Below are positions 18,798 through 26,409 of a stretch of 36,997 bases of DNA, in pieces (the stretch's first letter is position 1; every line of letters starts with the position of its first letter). The notes beneath the pieces were generated by a model. That model saw nothing but the letters and a program-made list of their open reading frames with translations, had not been told where the DNA came from and ran no database searches. The translations under genes and the position numbers were made by a program. The stretch spans positions 1 to 36,997 of the forward strand of contig JADMII010000020.1 of assembly GCA_015478665.1 (NCBI GenBank), read 5' to 3'. Source of the stretch: Dehalococcoidia bacterium (GTDB lineage: Bacteria; Chloroflexota; Dehalococcoidia; DSTF01; JACRBR01).

Positions 18798-19565
18798 ATG
18801 GACGCATCGACGATCTTCGACCTGAGCGGGAAGGTGGCGCTGGTCACGGGCGGCAGCCGCGGCCTCGGGCGGGAGATGGTGCGGGCCTTCGCGCGCGCCG
18901 GCGCGGACGTCGTCATCGCCAGCCGCAAGCTCGACGCCTGCGAGGCGCTCGCGGCCGAGGTGCGGGCCGAGACCGGGCGCCAGGCCCTGGCGGTCGCCTG
19001 CCATGTCGGCGAGTGGGAGCAGGTCGAGCGGCTGGCAGAGGCGGCGTACGGGCGCTTCGGGCAGATCGATGTGCTGGTGAACAACGCCGGCATGTCGCCG
19101 ACGTACGACGGCGTCGAGAGCGTGACGGAGGCGCTCTGGGACAAGGTGCTCGACGTCAACCTCAAGGGGCCGTTTCGGCTGACGTCGCTCGTCGGAGCGC
19201 GGATGGCGGCGGGAGACGGCGGCTCGATCGTCTTCATCTCGAGCACCGCGTCGCAGACGCCGGGCGCCGACGTGATCCCGTACGGCGCGGCGAAGGCCGG
19301 CATCAACAACATGACGGCCGGCTTTGCGCGGGCGTTCGCACCGAAGGTGCGGGTGAACTGCATTATCCCGGGCCCGTTCCTCACGGACATCTCGAAGGCG
19401 TGGGACATGGAGGCGTTCGAGCGCGCGGCCGCACGCGGCATCCTGTTGCGCCGCGGTGGCGCGCCGGCGGAGATCGTCGGCGCGGCGCTCTACTTCGCGT
19501 CGGACGCATCGAGCTTCACGACGGGTGCGCATCTCGTCGTCTCGGGCGGTCAGGCTGGTGGCTAG
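18798..19565 (+). CDS. Short-chain dehydrogenase/reductase
   Basis: ATG 18798, after CGGAGGAGCG, gives 255 residues. Classical SDR motifs are the nucleotide-binding TGGSRGLG (17-24), NNAG (95-98), catalytic Ser149 in FISST, and Tyr162-x3-Lys166 (PYGAAKAG), with PGP-F-T near residue 188. It is an NAD(P)-dependent oxidoreductase acting on a hydroxy/keto group. The kinase-like gene follows after 1 bp, and an acyl-CoA dehydrogenase lies beyond that. An SDR, APH-like kinase and acyl-CoA dehydrogenase together are the same parts as LvaD, LvaA and LvaC of levulinate catabolism, so a hydroxyacyl/ketoacyl-CoA substrate is plausible. Confidence 0.92.
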   Translation: MDASTIFDLSGKVALVTGGSRGLGREMVRAFARAGADVVIASRKLDACEALAAEVRAETGRQALAVACHVGEWEQVERLAEAAYGRFGQIDVLVNNAGMSPTYDGVESVTEALWDKVLDVNLKGPFRLTSLVGARMAAGDGGSIVFISSTASQTPGADVIPYGAAKAGINNMTAGFARAFAPKVRVNCIIPGPFLTDISKAWDMEAFERAAARGILLRRGGAPAEIVGAALYFASDASSFTTGAHLVVSGGQAGG

Positions 19566-19566
19566 G

Positions 19567-20625
19567 ATGGCGGCCGAGACCGGTATCGATGCGAGGGTCG
19601 TGGACTTCGACGTGCTGGGCGCCTGGATGACGGGGCAGGGCCTGCCCGGGGGCGCCTTCGAGGGCGTCGAATTGCTCGCCGGCGGCACGCAGAACGTGCT
19701 GGTGCGCTTCACGCGCGGCGGGCGCGAGTACGTGCTCCGGCGGGGGCCGGAGCACCTCCGCCCGAAGAGCAACGAGGTGATGCGACGCGAGGCGCGCGTG
19801 CTGACCGCGCTCGACGGGACGGACGTGCCGCATCCTCGCTTCATCGCCGGCTGCCTGGACGAGGCGGTGATGCACGGCGCGGTGTTCTACCTGATGGAAG
19901 CCGTCGACGGCTTCAACCCGGGCAGAGCGCTGCCGCCGCTGCACGCAGCGGACGCGGGCGTGCGACGAGAGATGGGGCTGCGGATCGCCGATGGCGCGGC
20001 GGCGCTCGGGCGTGTGGACCACCTCGCCGTCGGGCTCGCGGCCTTCGGGCAGCCGCAGGGCTTCATCGAGCGGCAGGTGCCGCGCTGGCTCGGCGAGCTG
20101 GAGTCGTACCGCCGCTTCGAGGGCTACCCGGGGCCGGCGATCCCGGGCGTCGACCGCGTCGCCGCCTGGCTCGACGACAATCGGCCGTCGCGCTGGACGC
20201 CGGGGATCATGCACGGGGACTACCACTTCGCCAATGTGCTGTACGCGCACGACGGGCCGCGCCTCGCGGCGATCGTCGACTGGGAGATGTGCACGATCGG
20301 CGACCCGCTGTTGGACCTCGGCTGGCTGCTGGCGACGTGGCCGGACGGCTCCGGTGCCGGCCCGGGCGTCGGCTCGCCGCTCGCCGCGGCCGGTGGATTG
20401 CCGTCGACAGCGGAGGTCGTCGCGCGATACGGCGAGGGTTCGGCGCGCGATCTGTCGGGCGCCGGCTGGTACGGCGTGCTCGCATGCTTCAAGCTTGGGA
20501 TCGTGCTGGAGGGCACGCACGCGCGGGCGAGCGCGGGTCTGGCGCCGAAGGCGACGGGCGACCTCCTGCACGCCACGACGCTGGCGCTGTTCGAGCGCGC
20601 GCGGGCCATGATCGCGGGCGCGTAG
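19567..20625 (+). CDS. APH-family phosphotransferase (ACAD10/11-kinase or LvaA type)
   Basis: ATG 19567 lies 1 bp after the SDR stop and yields 352 residues. The aminoglycoside-phosphotransferase fold is shown by the substrate/nucleotide loop LAGGTQNVLVRF, Lys/Arg-rich YVLRRGPEH, Brenner motif HGDYHFANVL (216-225) and the metal-binding IVDWEMCTIGDPLLDLGW (Asp238). The DWE-CTIGDP-DLGW form is that of the kinase domain fused to acyl-CoA dehydrogenases ACAD10/11 and of LvaA, which phosphorylates a 4-hydroxyacyl-CoA before elimination. Aminoglycoside resistance is not indicated. Here kinase and dehydrogenase are separate adjacent genes. Confidence 0.88.
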   Translation: MAAETGIDARVVDFDVLGAWMTGQGLPGGAFEGVELLAGGTQNVLVRFTRGGREYVLRRGPEHLRPKSNEVMRREARVLTALDGTDVPHPRFIAGCLDEAVMHGAVFYLMEAVDGFNPGRALPPLHAADAGVRREMGLRIADGAAALGRVDHLAVGLAAFGQPQGFIERQVPRWLGELESYRRFEGYPGPAIPGVDRVAAWLDDNRPSRWTPGIMHGDYHFANVLYAHDGPRLAAIVDWEMCTIGDPLLDLGWLLATWPDGSGAGPGVGSPLAAAGGLPSTAEVVARYGEGSARDLSGAGWYGVLACFKLGIVLEGTHARASAGLAPKATGDLLHATTLALFERARAMIAGA

Positions 20626-20801
20626 GCCTCAGCCGACCGGCGGCGGCCGCAGGCGTCGACGCAGTGACGCGGGATGCGGCGGCGTGCCCGACAGGGACGC
20701 TTGCCGTATCGCTGGAGACGCGCAGAATGCATCCTGCGACGGCGCGCGACCATCGTGGGCGATGACGTCAGGGCGAGGCAGACGATGAGCGGAGGCAGAG
20801 G

Positions 20802-22028
20802 ATGATCGACTTCGAGATCCCGGCGGACGCGAAAGAGGTGCGCGAGCGCGTGCGGAAGTTCGTGCAGGACGAGTGCATCCCGGCGGAACAGCAGCTCGAG
20901 AGCCGGCCGTACAAGGAGGTGCTCGGCGAGCTGCGGACGAAGGCGCGGGCGCAGGGGCTGTGGTGTCCGTTCATCCCGCCGGAGTACGGCGGCATGGGCC
21001 TCGGGCCGCTGGCGAATGCACTGGTGCAGATGGAGCTCGGCGAGAGCTACCTGGGCGCGCTGGCGCTAAACACGCAGGGCCCCGACGACGCGACGATGCT
21101 GACGCTGCTCGTGCACGGCACGGACTTCCAGAAGGAGAAGTTCCTCAAGCCGCTGCTCAACGGCGAGAAGCGGGTCTGCTACTCGATGACGGAGAAGGCG
21201 GCCGGCGCCGACGCGACCGGCATGCAGACGCGCGCCGTCCGCGACGGCGACAACTGGCTGATCAACGGCGAGAAGTGGTTCAGCAGCGCCGCGTCGGTCG
21301 CGGACATCGCGCTGATCATGGCGAAGACGGACCCCGACGCGCCGCGCCATCAGCAGTTCAGCACCTTCCTCGTCGAGCTGCCGAACCCCGGCTACCAGAT
21401 CCAGCGCAACATCCGCACGATGGCGGGCGAGAGCCGGCTGGGCGAGATGCTCGGCGGCGGCCACGCCGAGATCCTCATCAAGGACCTCGTCGTGCCGAAC
21501 GAGAACGTCCTCGGCGGCGAGGGTCAGGGCTTCAACATGGGGCAGCACCGCCTCGCCTACGGCCGGCTGCGCCACGGCATGCACAACGTGGCGATGGCGC
21601 AGCGGGCGCTGGACATGGCGGCGAAGCGGGTGCTGGAGCGCTCGACCTTCGGCAAGCCATTGTCGGAGCGCCAGGGCGTGCAGTGGATGCTGGCAGACTG
21701 CGCGAGCGAGCTGTACATGGCGCGGCTGATGCTGCTGCACATCGCCTACAAGGCGGAGAAGGGGCTGGACCTGCGGCAGGAGAACTCGATCGCCAAGGTC
21801 TTCCTGGCGCACATGGTGCACAAGGTCGTCGATACGGCGATCCAACTGCACGGCGCGCTCGGCTACAGCGAGGACACGCCGCTGGCGCGCTGGTACACGA
21901 GCATCCGCTCGCAACGGCTGGTCGATGGACCGGACGAGGTGCACCGCTGGACAGTCGGCCGCAACGTGTTGAAGGCGTACAAGGAGCACGGCACGACGGC
22001 GCTGGCGGCCGGCGGCGATCTGTTGTGA
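20802..22028 (+). CDS. Acyl-CoA dehydrogenase (ACAD10/11 or LvaC-like)
   Basis: A 408-residue flavoprotein, MIDFEIPADAKEVRERVRKF onward, started at ATG 20802 after GGAGGCAGAGG. Family features are CPFIPPEYGGMGL, YSMTEKAAGADATGMQT, INGEKWFSSAA, GQGFNMGQHRLAYGRLRHG, RSTFGKPLSERQ and the C-terminal QLHGALGYSEDTPLARWYTS. The FxK-Y-S-M-T-E-K-A-AGAD pattern and the DGPDEVH ending match ACAD10/11-type enzymes rather than short-chain butyryl-CoA dehydrogenases. With the kinase gene upstream it probably acts on a phosphorylated hydroxyacyl-CoA intermediate. Two minute frames (20762-20788 and 20785-20805) end in ATGA overlaps just before the start, perhaps by chance. The spacer from 20626 has no other gene. 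Confidence 0.9.
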   Translation: MIDFEIPADAKEVRERVRKFVQDECIPAEQQLESRPYKEVLGELRTKARAQGLWCPFIPPEYGGMGLGPLANALVQMELGESYLGALALNTQGPDDATMLTLLVHGTDFQKEKFLKPLLNGEKRVCYSMTEKAAGADATGMQTRAVRDGDNWLINGEKWFSSAASVADIALIMAKTDPDAPRHQQFSTFLVELPNPGYQIQRNIRTMAGESRLGEMLGGGHAEILIKDLVVPNENVLGGEGQGFNMGQHRLAYGRLRHGMHNVAMAQRALDMAAKRVLERSTFGKPLSERQGVQWMLADCASELYMARLMLLHIAYKAEKGLDLRQENSIAKVFLAHMVHKVVDTAIQLHGALGYSEDTPLARWYTSIRSQRLVDGPDEVHRWTVGRNVLKAYKEHGTTALAAGGDLL

Positions 22029-22277: not shown

Positions 22278-23351
22278 ATGAAGCTCGGCGGTCATTTCTT
22301 CGAGGACCTTGGTCCGGGGCAGCGGCTGATCAATCCTGTGCCGCGAACGGTCACGGAGGGCGATGTCGCCTTGTACATCGCGCTCACCGGCGACCGGAAC
22401 CCGAAGAACTGCTCCGCCGAGTTCGCCCGCAGCCTCGGCTTCGCGCGCGCGCCGGTCCACGACCTGCTCGTCTTTCACATCGTTTTCGGGCGCACGGTGG
22501 GCGAGATCTCGCTGAACTCGCCGGGCAACCTGGGCTACGCCGACCTGCGCTTCCTGCGCCCGGTCTTCCCCGGCGACACGCTGCGCGCGGAGACGGAGAC
22601 GCTCGGCTGGCGGGAGACGTCGAAGGGTGACACCGGCGTCGTCTGGGTGCGGACGACCGGCTTCAACCAGCGCGACGAGCGCGTGCTGCAGTTCTACCGC
22701 TGGGTGATGGTGAACAAGCGCGAGCCGGCGACGCCGACCGGCGCCGTCGACGCGCCGGCGATGCCGAAGGAGGCGGAGCGCGCCCATCTGCACGCGCTGC
22801 CGTATCCGCCGTTCGCGCGCTTCGACGCATCGGCGACGGGCGGCGCGCGCTTCTGGGAGGATTACGCCGCCGGCGAGCGGCTGTTGCATCCGCAGGGGAT
22901 GACGATCGAGGAGGCGGAGCACCAGCTGGCGACGCGACTGTACCAGAACACGGCGCGGGTGCACTTCAACCAGCATCAGCAGCAGGCGTCGCGGCACGGG
23001 CGCCGCATCATCTACGGCGGCCACGTCATCTCGGTCGCCCAGGCGCTGTCGTTCGACGGGCTGGAGAACGTCATCGGCATGGCGGCATGGAACAGCGGCT
23101 CGCACACCAACCCGACCTTCGCCGGCGACACGCTCTTCGCCTGGACGGACGTGCTCGAGGCGATCGACATCCGACGCGACGACCTGGGGGCGCTGCGGCT
23201 GCGGCTGGTCGCCGTCAAGAACGTCGACCCGTCGCAGCAGGAGGTGGCGCTGATGGCGACGGACGAGAGCGGCCGCGAGCGGTACGCGCCGGCGGTCGTG
23301 CTGGACCTCGAGTACGTGGGGCTGATGCCGCGGCGCGCCGTCGCCGGCTGA
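22278..23351 (+). CDS. mch: Mesaconyl-CoA hydratase (beta-methylmalyl-CoA dehydratase)
   Basis: ATG 22278 follows GGGGAGG and encodes 357 residues with a double hot-dog (MaoC-like) layout. The first domain begins MKLGGHFFEDLGPGQRL and contains RTVTEGDVALYIALTGDRNP, characteristic of Mch; the second begins FWEDYAAGERLLHPQGMTIE and includes YGGHVISVAQALSFDGLEN. The enzyme interconverts mesaconyl-C1-CoA and beta-methylmalyl-CoA in the ethylmalonyl-CoA and 3-hydroxypropionate pathways. The neighbours support this: a methylsuccinyl-CoA dehydrogenase gene (making its substrate) and a beta-methylmalyl-CoA lyase gene (using its product) follow on the same strand. Confidence 0.88.
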   Translation: MKLGGHFFEDLGPGQRLINPVPRTVTEGDVALYIALTGDRNPKNCSAEFARSLGFARAPVHDLLVFHIVFGRTVGEISLNSPGNLGYADLRFLRPVFPGDTLRAETETLGWRETSKGDTGVVWVRTTGFNQRDERVLQFYRWVMVNKREPATPTGAVDAPAMPKEAERAHLHALPYPPFARFDASATGGARFWEDYAAGERLLHPQGMTIEEAEHQLATRLYQNTARVHFNQHQQQASRHGRRIIYGGHVISVAQALSFDGLENVIGMAAWNSGSHTNPTFAGDTLFAWTDVLEAIDIRRDDLGALRLRLVAVKNVDPSQQEVALMATDESGRERYAPAVVLDLEYVGLMPRRAVAG

Positions 23352-23552
23352 ACCGCAGATGGCGGTGTGCGCCAGGATCACCCTCCGCCGGCCGCGCCCC
23401 GCTTTGGTGGAGAGCGGGCGCGTCGAAGCGATGTCGAGGCAGATGTCGGCAGATGGCGCAGTAGCGGTGGTACACGCGGCGTCACGCCGATCGCTTGGCG
23501 GCGATGGCGCGAGCAACGACCATCGGCGAGTGCGCATAGGCCGGCGGTTGCG

Positions 23553-23558
23553 TAGAAT
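23553..23558 (+). promoter_or_regulatory. Leaderless -10 box before the mcd leader ORF
   Basis: TAGAAT, exactly 6 bp before GTG 23565, which opens a 14-codon frame coupled to mcd. Confidence 0.5.
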
Positions 23559-23564
23559 GCTGCC

Positions 23565-23609
23565 GTGAATCTGAAGACGCCTCACTTCGCGGCGGGGCGC
23601 GCCCGATGA
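23565..23609 (+). CDS. 14-codon leader ORF coupled to mcd
   Basis: GTG 23565 starts MNLKTPHFAAGRAR and stops at TGA 23607-23609, which overlaps the mcd start as ATGA. The GTG is placed at the leaderless distance (N6) from TAGAAT. The mcd ATG has no evident Shine-Dalgarno of its own, so ribosomes finishing this short frame could restart at mcd. The peptide itself need not have a role. This rests on position and spacing only. Confidence 0.45.
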   Translation: MNLKTPHFAAGRAR

Positions 23610-25282
23610 CATCCGACGCGACGACGACGACAACGACGACGCTCGCCGGCGCCCGCGCGCTCGCCGACCGCGCCGACGCGCTCGCCCGCGCCGCCATCGA
23701 GCGGGCGGCAGTGCTGACGCGCGGCGGCGCCGACATCGACGAGCACCAGGTGCTGTGCCAACGGCTGGCGATGATCGCGACGGAAGCGCGCGCGGCGTCG
23801 GCGCTGGCGGCGCACGCGGAGGCGCTCGCCGCTTCAGGTCGGGCAGACCCGCTCAGCGAAGACGAAGCGCTGGCGTGCGCGGCCGAGGTCGTCCAGAAGA
23901 TCGCGTCGGTCGCGCAGGCGCACCCGGACGACTTCGGCGGCGGCGGCGCGCTCGACGAATCGGTGCGGGCGCTCGTCCGCAGCGGTCTCGACGACGGACG
24001 GCTGCGGCGCATCGGCGAGCGGGTGATCGCCGGTGGCGGCGTTAACAACGTCGAGCTGGATGACGACGACGCGGCGTCCACGCGCGCGTTCACGCGCCAG
24101 TTCGCACGGCTGGAGGTGTTGAAGGAAGAGGACGGCATCGCTCTCGCGGACCGCATCCACCGCGACGACCTGCTCGTCCCGGAGTCGCTGATCCGGCAGT
24201 TCGCCGAGCTCGGCTTCTTCGGCAGCTCCGTTCCGGAGAGCTACGGCGGCACGGAGATGGGCTACCTGACGATGATCGTGCTGACCGAAGAGCTGTCGGC
24301 GGCGTCGCTGATCGCCGGCAGCCTGCTCACGCGGTCGGAGATCCTGACGCGGGCGCTGCTCGAAGGCGGCACGGAGCGGCAGAAGCGGACGTGGTTGCCG
24401 CGCCTCGCGTCGGGCGAGGTGCTCGTCGCCATTTCCGTCACGGAGCCGGACGTAGGCTCGGACGTCGCATCGGTACAGTGCCGGGCGGCGCTGGGCGAGC
24501 GCGACGGCCGGCGGGGCTGGCTGATCAACGGCGCCAAGGCCTGGTGCACCTTCGCCGGCCGCGCGGACGTGCTGGCGCTGCTGGCCCGCACAGACGCCGA
24601 CGCGTCGAAGGGGTACGCCGGGCTGTCGCTGTTCATCGTCCCGAAGGAGACCTTCGACGGGCACAAGTTCGCGTATCGCCAGCCAGAGGGCGGGCTGCTG
24701 ACCGGCGAGGCGATCGCCACGCCGGGCTACCGCGGCATGCACTCGTTCGTCCTCAACTTCGATGACTACTTCGTGCCGGCGGAGAACCTCGTCGGCGAGG
24801 AGCAGGGCATCGGCCGCGGCTTCTACCTGACGCTCGGCGGCTTCGCGATCGGCCGGCTGCAGACGGGCGGCCGGGCGCTGGGCGTCGCGCAGGCGGCGCT
24901 CGAGAAGGCGTGCGCCTACGTCACGCAGCGGACGCAGTTCGGGCGGCCAATCGCCGGGTACCAGCTGACGCAGTACAAGATCGGCGTGATGGCGACGCGC
25001 ATCGCCGCGGCGCGCCAGCTGACGTACAGCGTCGCGCGCACGACGGCGCCTGGCGCGCGGGCGCCGCTGGGGCCAGCGATGGCGAAGCTGTTCGCATCGG
25101 ACATCGCGGTGTACGCGACGCAGGATGCGCAGCTGCTCCACGGCGGCTGGGGCTACGCGGAGGAGGACCGCATCGCGCGCTTCGTGGCGGACGCGCAAGT
25201 GCTGCCGATCTTCGAAGGCGTCAAGGCGACGCTGGAGCTGAAGGTGATCGCCCGCGCGCTCGTGGCGCCGGAGCGCGGTTGA
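23606..25282 (+). CDS. mcd: Methylsuccinyl-CoA dehydrogenase
   Basis: This 558-residue acyl-CoA dehydrogenase is about 160 residues longer at the N-terminus than ordinary family members, the length and layout of (2S)-methylsuccinyl-CoA dehydrogenase. The extension (about 10-160) is helical, with ALADRADALARAAIERAAV and DIDEHQVLCQRLAMIATEA. The flavoprotein core carries FFGSSVPESYGGTEMGYL, SVTEPDVGSDVASVQ, INGAKAWCTFAGRADVLALL, GYRGMHSFVLNFDDYFVP, GRLQTGGRALGVAQAAL and the HGGWGYAEEDRIARFVADAQ end. It oxidises methylsuccinyl-CoA to mesaconyl-C1-CoA. It lies between mch and the lyase gene, which catalyse the next two steps. Confidence 0.85.
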   Translation: MTSDATTTTTTTLAGARALADRADALARAAIERAAVLTRGGADIDEHQVLCQRLAMIATEARAASALAAHAEALAASGRADPLSEDEALACAAEVVQKIASVAQAHPDDFGGGGALDESVRALVRSGLDDGRLRRIGERVIAGGGVNNVELDDDDAASTRAFTRQFARLEVLKEEDGIALADRIHRDDLLVPESLIRQFAELGFFGSSVPESYGGTEMGYLTMIVLTEELSAASLIAGSLLTRSEILTRALLEGGTERQKRTWLPRLASGEVLVAISVTEPDVGSDVASVQCRAALGERDGRRGWLINGAKAWCTFAGRADVLALLARTDADASKGYAGLSLFIVPKETFDGHKFAYRQPEGGLLTGEAIATPGYRGMHSFVLNFDDYFVPAENLVGEEQGIGRGFYLTLGGFAIGRLQTGGRALGVAQAALEKACAYVTQRTQFGRPIAGYQLTQYKIGVMATRIAAARQLTYSVARTTAPGARAPLGPAMAKLFASDIAVYATQDAQLLHGGWGYAEEDRIARFVADAQVLPIFEGVKATLELKVIARALVAPERG

Positions 25283-25380
25283 GCCGTCGCGAGGCCCTTC
25301 TGCTGCTTGTGGGGTACTGGTTGTCGTCGTCCGTACGCGCGACGGTCTAACTCGATCGCCGAAGTCAGGGAGAGCCACCG

Positions 25381-26409
25381 ATGTACGTCCTGCAGAAGAA
25401 GAACCTCCTCGTCATCCCGCGCACGGAGCTGACGTATCCGGCGCACACGCTGAAGATGCACGAGAAGGCAGCCGCGGCGCCGACCGACCATGTGATGCCG
25501 GACTTCGAGGATGCCTGCCCGTACGAGTTCAAGGGCGACGCGAGCCGCCGGGTGATGGTCGAGGCCCTGAACACGATCGACTTCGGCAACAAGGTCATCG
25601 CCATCCGCCCCAACAACATCCGCTCGAAGTTCTTCCTCGGCGACCTGCACGCGATCATGCTCGGCGCGCCGGACAGGTTTCACGGCATCATCCTGCCGAA
25701 GACGAACGAGCCGGAGGACATCGTGCACCTGGCACGCCTGCTCGACGCGCTCGAGGAGCAGGGCGGCTGGACGACGCACGTGCAGATCGAGGCGCTGATC
25801 GAGATGCCGCTCGCCGTCGTGAACGCCTACAAGATCGCGACGGCGTCGCCACGAATGGCGGGGCTGATCTTCGGCATCGCCGACTTCAGCGCCAGCATGG
25901 GCGTGCGGGAGATGATCGACGACCAGAACCGGAACTTCCACTACGCGAAGCAGGCCACCGCCGTCGCCGCGAAGGCGGCGGGCCTGCACGCCATCGACAA
26001 CGCCTACCTGCGGCTGATCCGGCCGGACACGCCGGCGGAGGAAGCAGGGAAGATCAGGGCCGGCCTGCGAGAGAAGAGCGCCGGCTCGCGCGACCTGGGG
26101 ATGGACGGCACGTGGGTGATCCACCCGCAGCAGGCGGAGATCGCCAACGACGTCTTCACGCCGGACGACGCGCAGATCGCCGCGACGAAGCGCTCGCTGG
26201 AGGTGTACCACCGGCTCGGCGGCGGGTCGATCGCCGATCCGGAGACCGGCGAGTTCTACGATGAGGCGACGACGAAGGCGATGCTTATGGACCTGGCGAA
26301 GGCGGTACAGGCGGGCAAGCTCGAGGCGTCGTGGCTGGCGGAGATGGCGGAGAAGTCGAAGGCCGTCAGCGGCTACGACATCCTCGAAGTGATGGGGCGG
26401 GTGGCGTAG
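25381..26409 (+). CDS. mcl1: Beta-methylmalyl-CoA / malyl-CoA lyase (HpcH/HpaI family)
   Basis: ATG 25381, after GGGAGAG, gives 342 residues with the CitE-like TIM barrel. Features are DHVMPDFEDACPYEFKGDAS (acidic metal/CoA region), VIAIRPNN with Arg, ILPKTNEPEDIVHL, VQIEALIEMPLAVVNAY (the catalytic Glu region), FGIADFSASMGVR, and GTWVIHPQQAEIANDVFTP. Length and motifs fit Chloroflexus-type MCL, which cleaves beta-methylmalyl-CoA to glyoxylate and propionyl-CoA and also handles malyl-CoA. It completes the mcd-mch-mcl set. The 98-bp spacer before it contains no gene. Confidence 0.9.
   Translation: MYVLQKKNLLVIPRTELTYPAHTLKMHEKAAAAPTDHVMPDFEDACPYEFKGDASRRVMVEALNTIDFGNKVIAIRPNNIRSKFFLGDLHAIMLGAPDRFHGIILPKTNEPEDIVHLARLLDALEEQGGWTTHVQIEALIEMPLAVVNAYKIATASPRMAGLIFGIADFSASMGVREMIDDQNRNFHYAKQATAVAAKAAGLHAIDNAYLRLIRPDTPAEEAGKIRAGLREKSAGSRDLGMDGTWVIHPQQAEIANDVFTPDDAQIAATKRSLEVYHRLGGGSIADPETGEFYDEATTKAMLMDLAKAVQAGKLEASWLAEMAEKSKAVSGYDILEVMGRVA

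What the first reader, a model, noticed from the sequence alone, without database searches (positions are those of the whole stretch)
22278..26409. mch-mcd-mcl: consecutive steps of the ethylmalonyl-CoA pathway in a Chloroflexota-like genome
Methylsuccinyl-CoA to mesaconyl-CoA to beta-methylmalyl-CoA to glyoxylate plus propionyl-CoA are encoded side by side. Chloroflexus uses mch and mcl in the 3-hydroxypropionate bicycle but has no need for a long-form methylsuccinyl-CoA dehydrogenase. The mcd here points to the ethylmalonyl-CoA route, or a hybrid, for acetyl-CoA assimilation.
Basis: partly seen in the sequence, partly recalled or inferred. Interest (0 to 1): 0.6.

Follow-up and report, generated by a model that had tools for sequence, protein, structure and literature searches.

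The report
Chloroflexota acetate pathway with unusual mutase

Summary

The genome has crotonyl-CoA carboxylase/reductase (561 bits), an epimerase, and no isocitrate lyase or malate synthase. It has no canonical ethylmalonyl-CoA mutase (Ecm/MeaA). In 216 genomes of the class, this Mcd occurs in 34, all Ccr-positive (67 have Ccr). A second mutase of the genome ('Mut3', split type, HTN replaced by ALS at P. shermanii positions 364-366) forms its own clade. It sits beside ccr or inside whole pathway operons in many genomes. It is found in all 11 Ccr-positive families, and never together with canonical Ecm, which occurs in 7 Ccr-positive genomes that all lack Mut3.

Best reading: a Dehalococcoidia ethylmalonyl-CoA pathway using a non-orthologous Ecm, and probably a succinate/malate-CoA-ligase-like enzyme to release malate. 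No paper in the library I searched reports it. All functions are inferred from sequence, context and distribution; nothing has been assayed.

The parts
22278..23351 (+). mch: two-domain mesaconyl-C1-CoA hydratase (beta-methylmalyl-CoA dehydratase), 357 aa
   Evidence: PF19315, PF01575; 4e3e 364 bits, 8hgn 333 bits; directly beside mcd in relatives
23606..25282 (+). mcd: long-form (2S)-methylsuccinyl-CoA dehydrogenase, 558 aa; PdMCD R252, R376, R421 and E535 conserved; methyl pocket A285->I, F287->V, close to 8ciw (I, I)
   Evidence: restricted to Ccr-positive genomes
25381..26409 (+). mcl: malyl-CoA/beta-methylmalyl-CoA lyase, 342 aa; metal-ligand Glu and Asp of the lyases conserved (my reading of the alignment: E141, D168)
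   Evidence: (PF03328); followed by sucC-sucD-like genes in relatives
20802..22028 (+). neighbouring acyl-CoA dehydrogenase, 408 aa, not Mcd (lacks the three arginines); membership in the pathway not shown
19555..20625 (+). neighbouring APH-type phosphotransferase (PF01636), 356 aa; with the acyl-CoA dehydrogenase resembles an ACAD10/11-type 4-hydroxyacyl-CoA module (resemblance from memory)
18822..19565 (+). neighbouring short-chain dehydrogenase/reductase

Best explanation
The cluster encodes the steps from (2S)-methylsuccinyl-CoA to glyoxylate and propionyl-CoA of an ethylmalonyl-CoA (EMC) pathway that lets this Dehalococcoidia-related Chloroflexota bacterium assimilate acetyl-CoA without isocitrate lyase. 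Inferred route: acetyl-CoA is condensed, reduced and dehydrated to crotonyl-CoA; Ccr makes ethylmalonyl-CoA; an epimerase and a non-orthologous mutase (Mut3 = P0003, G000 C59:146944-148623, using the shared B12 small subunit and MeaB) make (2S)-methylsuccinyl-CoA. Mcd oxidises this to mesaconyl-CoA (electrons to ETF), Mch hydrates it to beta-methylmalyl-CoA, and Mcl cleaves it to glyoxylate and propionyl-CoA. Propionyl-CoA goes to succinyl-CoA through Mut2 (P0002), whose gene sits by mch-mcd-mcl in relatives. Glyoxylate is joined to acetyl-CoA by Mcl; malate is probably released from malyl-CoA by a SucCD-like ligase, since malate synthase is absent. Shown: gene presence, order, residues, co-occurrence. 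Inferred: every catalytic activity, the Mut3 role above all, and the ligase role and direction.
For: Own genome: Ccr 561 bits against a cut-off of 379, epimerase 134 against 115, two mutase large subunits, B12 subunit beside MeaB, SucC-like ligase 74% identical to the mcl-linked one with SucD beside it, no ICL, no malate synthase. Mcd in 34/216 class genomes, all with Ccr; Fisher p 3e-21 by genome, 4e-5 by family. Mut3: 53 of 60 carriers have Ccr, p 2e-29; all 11 Ccr families have it and 56 of 60 Ccr-negative families lack it, p 5e-10. Mut3 lies near ccr in G022, G110, G132, G165, G104, G030, G069, G094, G047 and, in another family outside the class, in G348, G250, G320, G257. Whole operon thiolase-phaB-mut3-MaoC-ACAD-sucD-sucC-mcl-phaJ-ccr in G047 (L108). 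Canonical Ecm is present in 7 Ccr+ genomes, all Mut3-negative, and in none of 53 Mut3-positive ones (p 4e-6; about 0.006 by genus, my arithmetic). Mut3 and Ecm are each single clades at 100/100.
Against: No enzyme was assayed. The genome lacks a canonical Ecm. Mcd differs from the characterised alphaproteobacterial Mcd at the methyl pocket (A285->I, F287->V, E380->S); replacing the equivalent alanine with isoleucine inactivated the R. sphaeroides enzyme (PMC5798300), though 8ciw, deposited as a (2S)-methylsuccinyl-CoA dehydrogenase, has a similar I-A-I pattern. In G000 ccr, mut3 and mch-mcd-mcl are on three different contigs. Seven Mut3-positive genomes lack a clear Ccr, and seven Ccr-positive genomes have neither mutase type. 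Genomes are related, so the p-values overstate independence. Mut3 residues 364-366 may touch the cofactor rather than the substrate, so they do not prove specificity.
Confidence: 0.82

Rival explanations
1. Catabolic module: mcd-mch-mcl degrade methylsuccinyl-CoA or mesaconyl-CoA that comes from exogenous C5 dicarboxylates or from methylated aromatics, as in proteobacterial clusters, and Ccr is unrelated.
For: The nearest plasmid homologues of this Mcd (45-50% identity) sit beside CoA-transferase, MaoC or CitE genes without ccr in the stretches seen: Paraburkholderia D15, IncP plasmid pAKD34, Sphingobium TomTYG74 with mch and citE. A pseudomonadal itaconate cluster with a methylsuccinyl-C4-CoA dehydrogenase is known (PMC12290011).
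Against: All 34 class genomes with this Mcd have Ccr, which a catabolic role would not need. No CoA-transferase gene was seen in the window cluster; Mut2 and SucCD lie beside it in relatives.
Confidence: 0.08
2. 3-hydroxypropionate bicycle or a hybrid: mch and mcl serve the second cycle as in Chloroflexus, and mcd is an add-on.
For: Same phylum as Chloroflexus; Mch is closest to 4e3e, which from memory is the Chloroflexus protein.
Against: Ccr and Mcd have no role in the bicycle; no mct-like CoA-transferase gene was seen in the window cluster; Mcl scores better against 5ugr and 4l9y than against 4l7z (that the last is the Chloroflexus lyase is from memory). Malonyl-CoA reductase, propionyl-CoA synthase and mct were not searched genome-wide.
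Confidence: 0.05
3. The pathway is an EMC pathway, but the Ecm step is done by Mut2, by a gene in an assembly gap, or by one promiscuous mutase; Mut3 is an ordinary second methylmalonyl-CoA mutase.
For: Both mutases keep the Y89-, R207- and H244-type positions of methylmalonyl-CoA mutase (roles from memory); only one small B12 subunit was found.
Against: Mut3, not Mut2, tracks Ccr and sits in ccr operons; Mut3 and canonical Ecm exclude each other. The genome is 98.9% complete and canonical Ecm is missing from all 53 Ccr-positive genomes that have Mut3.
Confidence: 0.12

Closest known systems
Ethylmalonyl-CoA pathway of Rhodobacter sphaeroides, Paracoccus and Methylobacterium
   Same: Ccr, epimerase, methylsuccinyl-CoA dehydrogenase, mesaconyl-CoA hydratase and malyl/methylmalyl-CoA lyase present; no isocitrate lyase found
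   Different: No Ecm of the MeaA clade in the window genome; a split MCM-type mutase clade (Mut3) is the candidate; malate synthase absent and a SucCD-like ligase is linked to mcl in relatives, where Rhodobacter has a malyl-CoA thioesterase; Mcd is of the 8ciw subtype
(2S)-methylsuccinyl-CoA dehydrogenase 8ciw (397 bits) and PdMCD 6es9 (263 bits)
   Same: Length about 550 aa, three carboxylate-binding arginines, catalytic Glu
   Different: A285/F287/E380 of PdMCD replaced by I/V/S; a similar pattern is found in 8ciw and the proteobacterial plasmid homologues
Ethylmalonyl-CoA mutase (Ecm/MeaA; Ruegeria, Paracoccus, Methylobacterium, Streptomyces)
   Same: Superfamily; predicted reaction; both alter the HTN segment (positions 364-366) of methylmalonyl-CoA mutase
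   Different: Mut3 is about 41% identical, lies outside the Ecm clade, keeps H328, lacks a fused B12 domain, and has ALS where Ecm has QLP
Pseudomonadal itaconate/methylsuccinate cluster (PMC12290011)
   Same: Dehydrogenation of a methylsuccinyl-CoA, hydration, C-C cleavage by a CitE-type lyase
   Different: Uses the C4 thioester and a CoA-transferase; no CoA-transferase gene was seen in the window cluster

Membership tests
Ethylmalonyl-CoA pathway | Crotonyl-CoA carboxylase/reductase in the genome | tested here: met
   C26:152939-154129, 561 bits, cut-off 378.55
Ethylmalonyl-CoA pathway | Canonical ethylmalonyl-CoA mutase (MeaA clade) | tested here: not met
   Only P0002 and P0003 found, both outside the Ecm clade at 100/100
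Ethylmalonyl-CoA pathway | Some mutase able to make methylsuccinyl-CoA | tested here: inconclusive
   Mut3 predicted by operon position, co-occurrence and exclusion of Ecm; activity not testable here
Ethylmalonyl-CoA pathway | mcd, mch and mcl present | tested here: met
Ethylmalonyl-CoA pathway | Methylmalonyl/ethylmalonyl-CoA epimerase | tested here: met
   C65:83554-83931, 133.6 bits over cut-off 114.95
Ethylmalonyl-CoA pathway | No isocitrate lyase (replacement of the glyoxylate shunt) | tested here: met
   PF00463: no match; the control search finds it in 8 of 14 genomes
(2S)-methylsuccinyl-CoA dehydrogenase | Arg252, Arg376, Arg421 and catalytic Glu535 (PdMCD numbering) | tested here: met
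(2S)-methylsuccinyl-CoA dehydrogenase | Long N-terminal extension (about 170 residues) | tested here: met
   558 aa; core begins near residue 160; extension aligned to 8ciw only from residue 114
(2S)-methylsuccinyl-CoA dehydrogenase | Ala285/Phe287 methyl pocket of the alphaproteobacterial enzymes | tested here: not met
   Ile/Val here; also not met by 8ciw (Ile/Ile), deposited as the same enzyme
Ecm/MeaA family (for Mut3) | Falls in the Ecm clade, with fused B12 domain | tested here: not met
   560 aa without B12 domain; separate B12 subunit
3-hydroxypropionate bicycle | Malonyl-CoA reductase, propionyl-CoA synthase, mesaconyl-CoA C1-C4 transferase | not tested
Itaconate/methylsuccinate utilisation cluster | CoA-transferase gene beside the dehydrogenase | tested here: not met
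   None among the window genes around mcd; relatives were not scanned with a CoA-transferase query; present in proteobacterial plasmids

The most novel reading that the evidence does not exclude
Mut3 is a second ethylmalonyl-CoA mutase family that arose from split methylmalonyl-CoA-type mutases independently of Ecm/MeaA. It is marked by ALSC in place of HTN[S/A] and is used by most EMC-pathway Dehalococcoidia and by at least one other Chloroflexota lineage, with canonical Ecm in its place in some genera.
Probability: 0.75. Interest if true: 0.66.

Novelty: new variant of a known kind. Interest (0 to 1): 0.56.

Why it matters
It would place an acetate-assimilation pathway in a class best known for organohalide-respiring anaerobes and extend the EMC pathway to many uncultured Chloroflexota. 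It would explain why annotation by the known Ecm misses the pathway there. It would also give a new, independently evolved ethylmalonyl-CoA mutase, an enzyme used in synthetic CO2-fixation cycles such as CETCH. The prediction is sharp: one two-subunit enzyme, one assay.

Tried and rejected
NCBIfam names for the three genes were of no use: all fell below their cut-offs. Mut2 as Ecm was rejected because it carries the HTN motif, is not linked to ccr in most genomes, and sits by mch-mcd-mcl in relatives; one exception, G051, has a Mut2-type gene near ccr but also a canonical Ecm elsewhere. A first automatic gene call picked antisense ORFs in this GC-rich DNA and was replaced by tblastn with reference proteins. 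Regular expressions for the mutase motif failed and were replaced by alignment columns. Isobutyryl-CoA mutase for Mut3 was rejected because it keeps the Y89 and R207 positions, which IcmF changes. Literature searches for Chloroflexota or Dehalococcoidia with ethylmalonyl-CoA, crotonyl-CoA carboxylase or methylsuccinyl-CoA listed no paper whose title or abstract describes this pathway in these groups; most of those papers were not read in full, and the library lacks most subscription journals. The HOPAC paper, which I hoped would describe 8ciw, is not held. Bicycle markers were not searched because the genome searches had run out.

Full report
What is in the window. Three + strand genes lie at the reported coordinates: 22278-23351 (357 aa), 23606-25282 (558 aa) and 25381-26409 (342 aa), all with coding-type third-position GC. 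Their best solved relatives are mesaconyl-CoA hydratase-type MaoC proteins (4e3e, 8hgn), two methylsuccinyl-CoA dehydrogenases (8ciw, 6es9) and malyl/methylmalyl-CoA lyases (5ugr, 4l9y). Residue by residue, Mcd keeps the three arginines that bind the free carboxylate and the catalytic glutamate of Paracoccus Mcd (R252, R376, R421, E535). The methyl pocket differs (A285 to I, F287 to V), close to the pattern of 8ciw (numbering and roles from PMC5798300). Upstream on the same strand lie a short-chain dehydrogenase, an APH-type kinase and another acyl-CoA dehydrogenase that lacks the arginines.

The rest of the genome. The window is contig 60 of a 2.67 Mb, 98.9% complete genome. Ccr is present at 561 bits, far over its cut-off, on another contig. 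An epimerase is over its cut-off. Isocitrate lyase and malate synthase are not detected, while the same searches find them in control genomes. There are exactly two mutase large subunits, P0002 (Mut2) and P0003 (Mut3). One small B12 subunit lies directly before a MeaB GTPase gene. A succinate-CoA-ligase-like pair, its SucC 74% identical to the one that follows mcl in relatives, is present on contig 33.

The missing Ecm. Reference ethylmalonyl-CoA mutases from Ruegeria, Paracoccus, Methylobacterium and Streptomyces, with a Leptospira relative, form one clade at 100/100, and neither Mut2 nor Mut3 is in it.

Co-occurrence. In an even sample of 216 genomes of the class, Mcd at 54% identity or more occurs in 34, and all 34 have Ccr, which occurs in 67. 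Record titles of relatives (Dehalococcoidia bacterium) suggest the class is Dehalococcoidia. This ties the window's Mcd to crotonyl-CoA carboxylation rather than to catabolism of methylsuccinate. Proteobacterial plasmid homologues, in contrast, lie in clusters without ccr in the stretches seen, several beside CoA-transferase genes.

Mut3 as the Ecm. Four lines agree. (1) Position: Mut3 lies in or near ccr clusters in nine class genomes of five families, and within a few kb of ccr in four genomes of another family outside the class. In G047, G030, G069 and G094 it lies in clusters that, together with ccr and mcl, hold thiolase, acetoacetyl-CoA reductase, an acyl-CoA dehydrogenase and a MaoC hydratase; three of the four also hold a second MaoC protein, and G047 and G069 the ligase pair (family names). 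(2) Distribution: all 11 Ccr-positive families have Mut3 and 56 of 60 Ccr-negative families lack it. (3) Exclusion: canonical Ecm is found in 7 of the 67 Ccr-positive genomes, and all 7 lack Mut3; none of the 53 Mut3-positive ones has it (p 4e-6). The seven belong to three genera in two families, so by genus the probability is about 0.006 (my arithmetic). (4) Sequence: Mut3 is one clade at 100/100 in which the HTN segment of methylmalonyl-CoA mutase (364-366, P. shermanii PDB numbering inferred) reads ALS in every member seen; Ecm reads QLP there. From memory, this segment contacts the cobalamin ribose in methylmalonyl-CoA mutase, so I do not use it as proof of substrate. Mut3 keeps the Y89- and R207-type positions that recognise a free carboxylate (roles from memory).

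Mut2 is the likely methylmalonyl-CoA mutase for propionyl-CoA: it has the HTN motif and lies beside mch-mcd-mcl in G014, G154 and G121.

How glyoxylate becomes malate. Rhodobacter uses a malyl-CoA thioesterase paralogue (PMC8307300). Here malate synthase is absent and a SucC-SucD pair, distinct from the genome's other SucC-like gene (33% identity), follows mcl in many relatives. It scores below the cut-offs for both succinate- and malate-CoA ligase. I infer that it takes malyl-CoA to malate with ATP formation; a succinate-CoA ligase serving the succinyl-CoA end of the same pathway is equally consistent.

Limits. No activity is shown. The class genomes are related and mostly draft assemblies. 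Seven Ccr-positive genomes have neither mutase type (81-93% complete). Of seven Mut3-positive genomes without a clear Ccr, two (G072, G005) still show the rest of the operon and one (G019) has a Ccr-like reductase at 35% identity directly before mut3. Markers of the 3-hydroxypropionate bicycle were not searched. No paper listed by my searches describes the pathway in Dehalococcoidia or other Chloroflexota in its title or abstract, but most subscription journals are not in the library.

Verdict.

Noticed in passing
window 18822-22028: Short-chain dehydrogenase, APH-type kinase and acyl-CoA dehydrogenase directly upstream of mch resemble the ACAD10/11-type 4-hydroxyacyl-CoA degradation module (from memory).
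   Followed up: no
L105, L106, L108, L109 (G030, G069, G047, G094): Ccr-positive genomes without long Mcd carry a short acyl-CoA dehydrogenase and a single-domain MaoC (closest NCBIfam model RipB/Ich) in EMC-type clusters: an alternative module for the same two steps. The dehydrogenase keeps R421 and E535 but has K at R376 and no R252.
   Followed up: partly
L229, L230, L228 (G072, G005, G019): EMC-type operons with Mut3 but no recognisable Ccr in the stretch seen; in G019 a Ccr-like reductase (35% identity) precedes mut3. How ethylmalonyl-CoA is made there is unexplained.
   Followed up: partly
L226, L227 and hits (G051, G093, G210 and others): A few Dehalococcoidia genera carry a canonical Ecm (58-64% identical to Ruegeria MeaA) in place of Mut3, which looks like gene displacement.
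   Followed up: yes
L026 (IncP plasmid pAKD34), L024 (Paraburkholderia D15), L027 (Sphingobium TomTYG74): 8ciw-type Mcd genes on plasmids lie by CoA-transferase, MaoC/mch or CitE genes, some near aromatic-degradation genes: likely a methylsuccinyl-CoA catabolic module, including on a conjugative plasmid.
   Followed up: no
L020 (G000 C59, about 48-50 kb): Only one small B12-binding mutase subunit, directly before meaB, was found for two mutase large subunits, so both probably share it.
   Followed up: no
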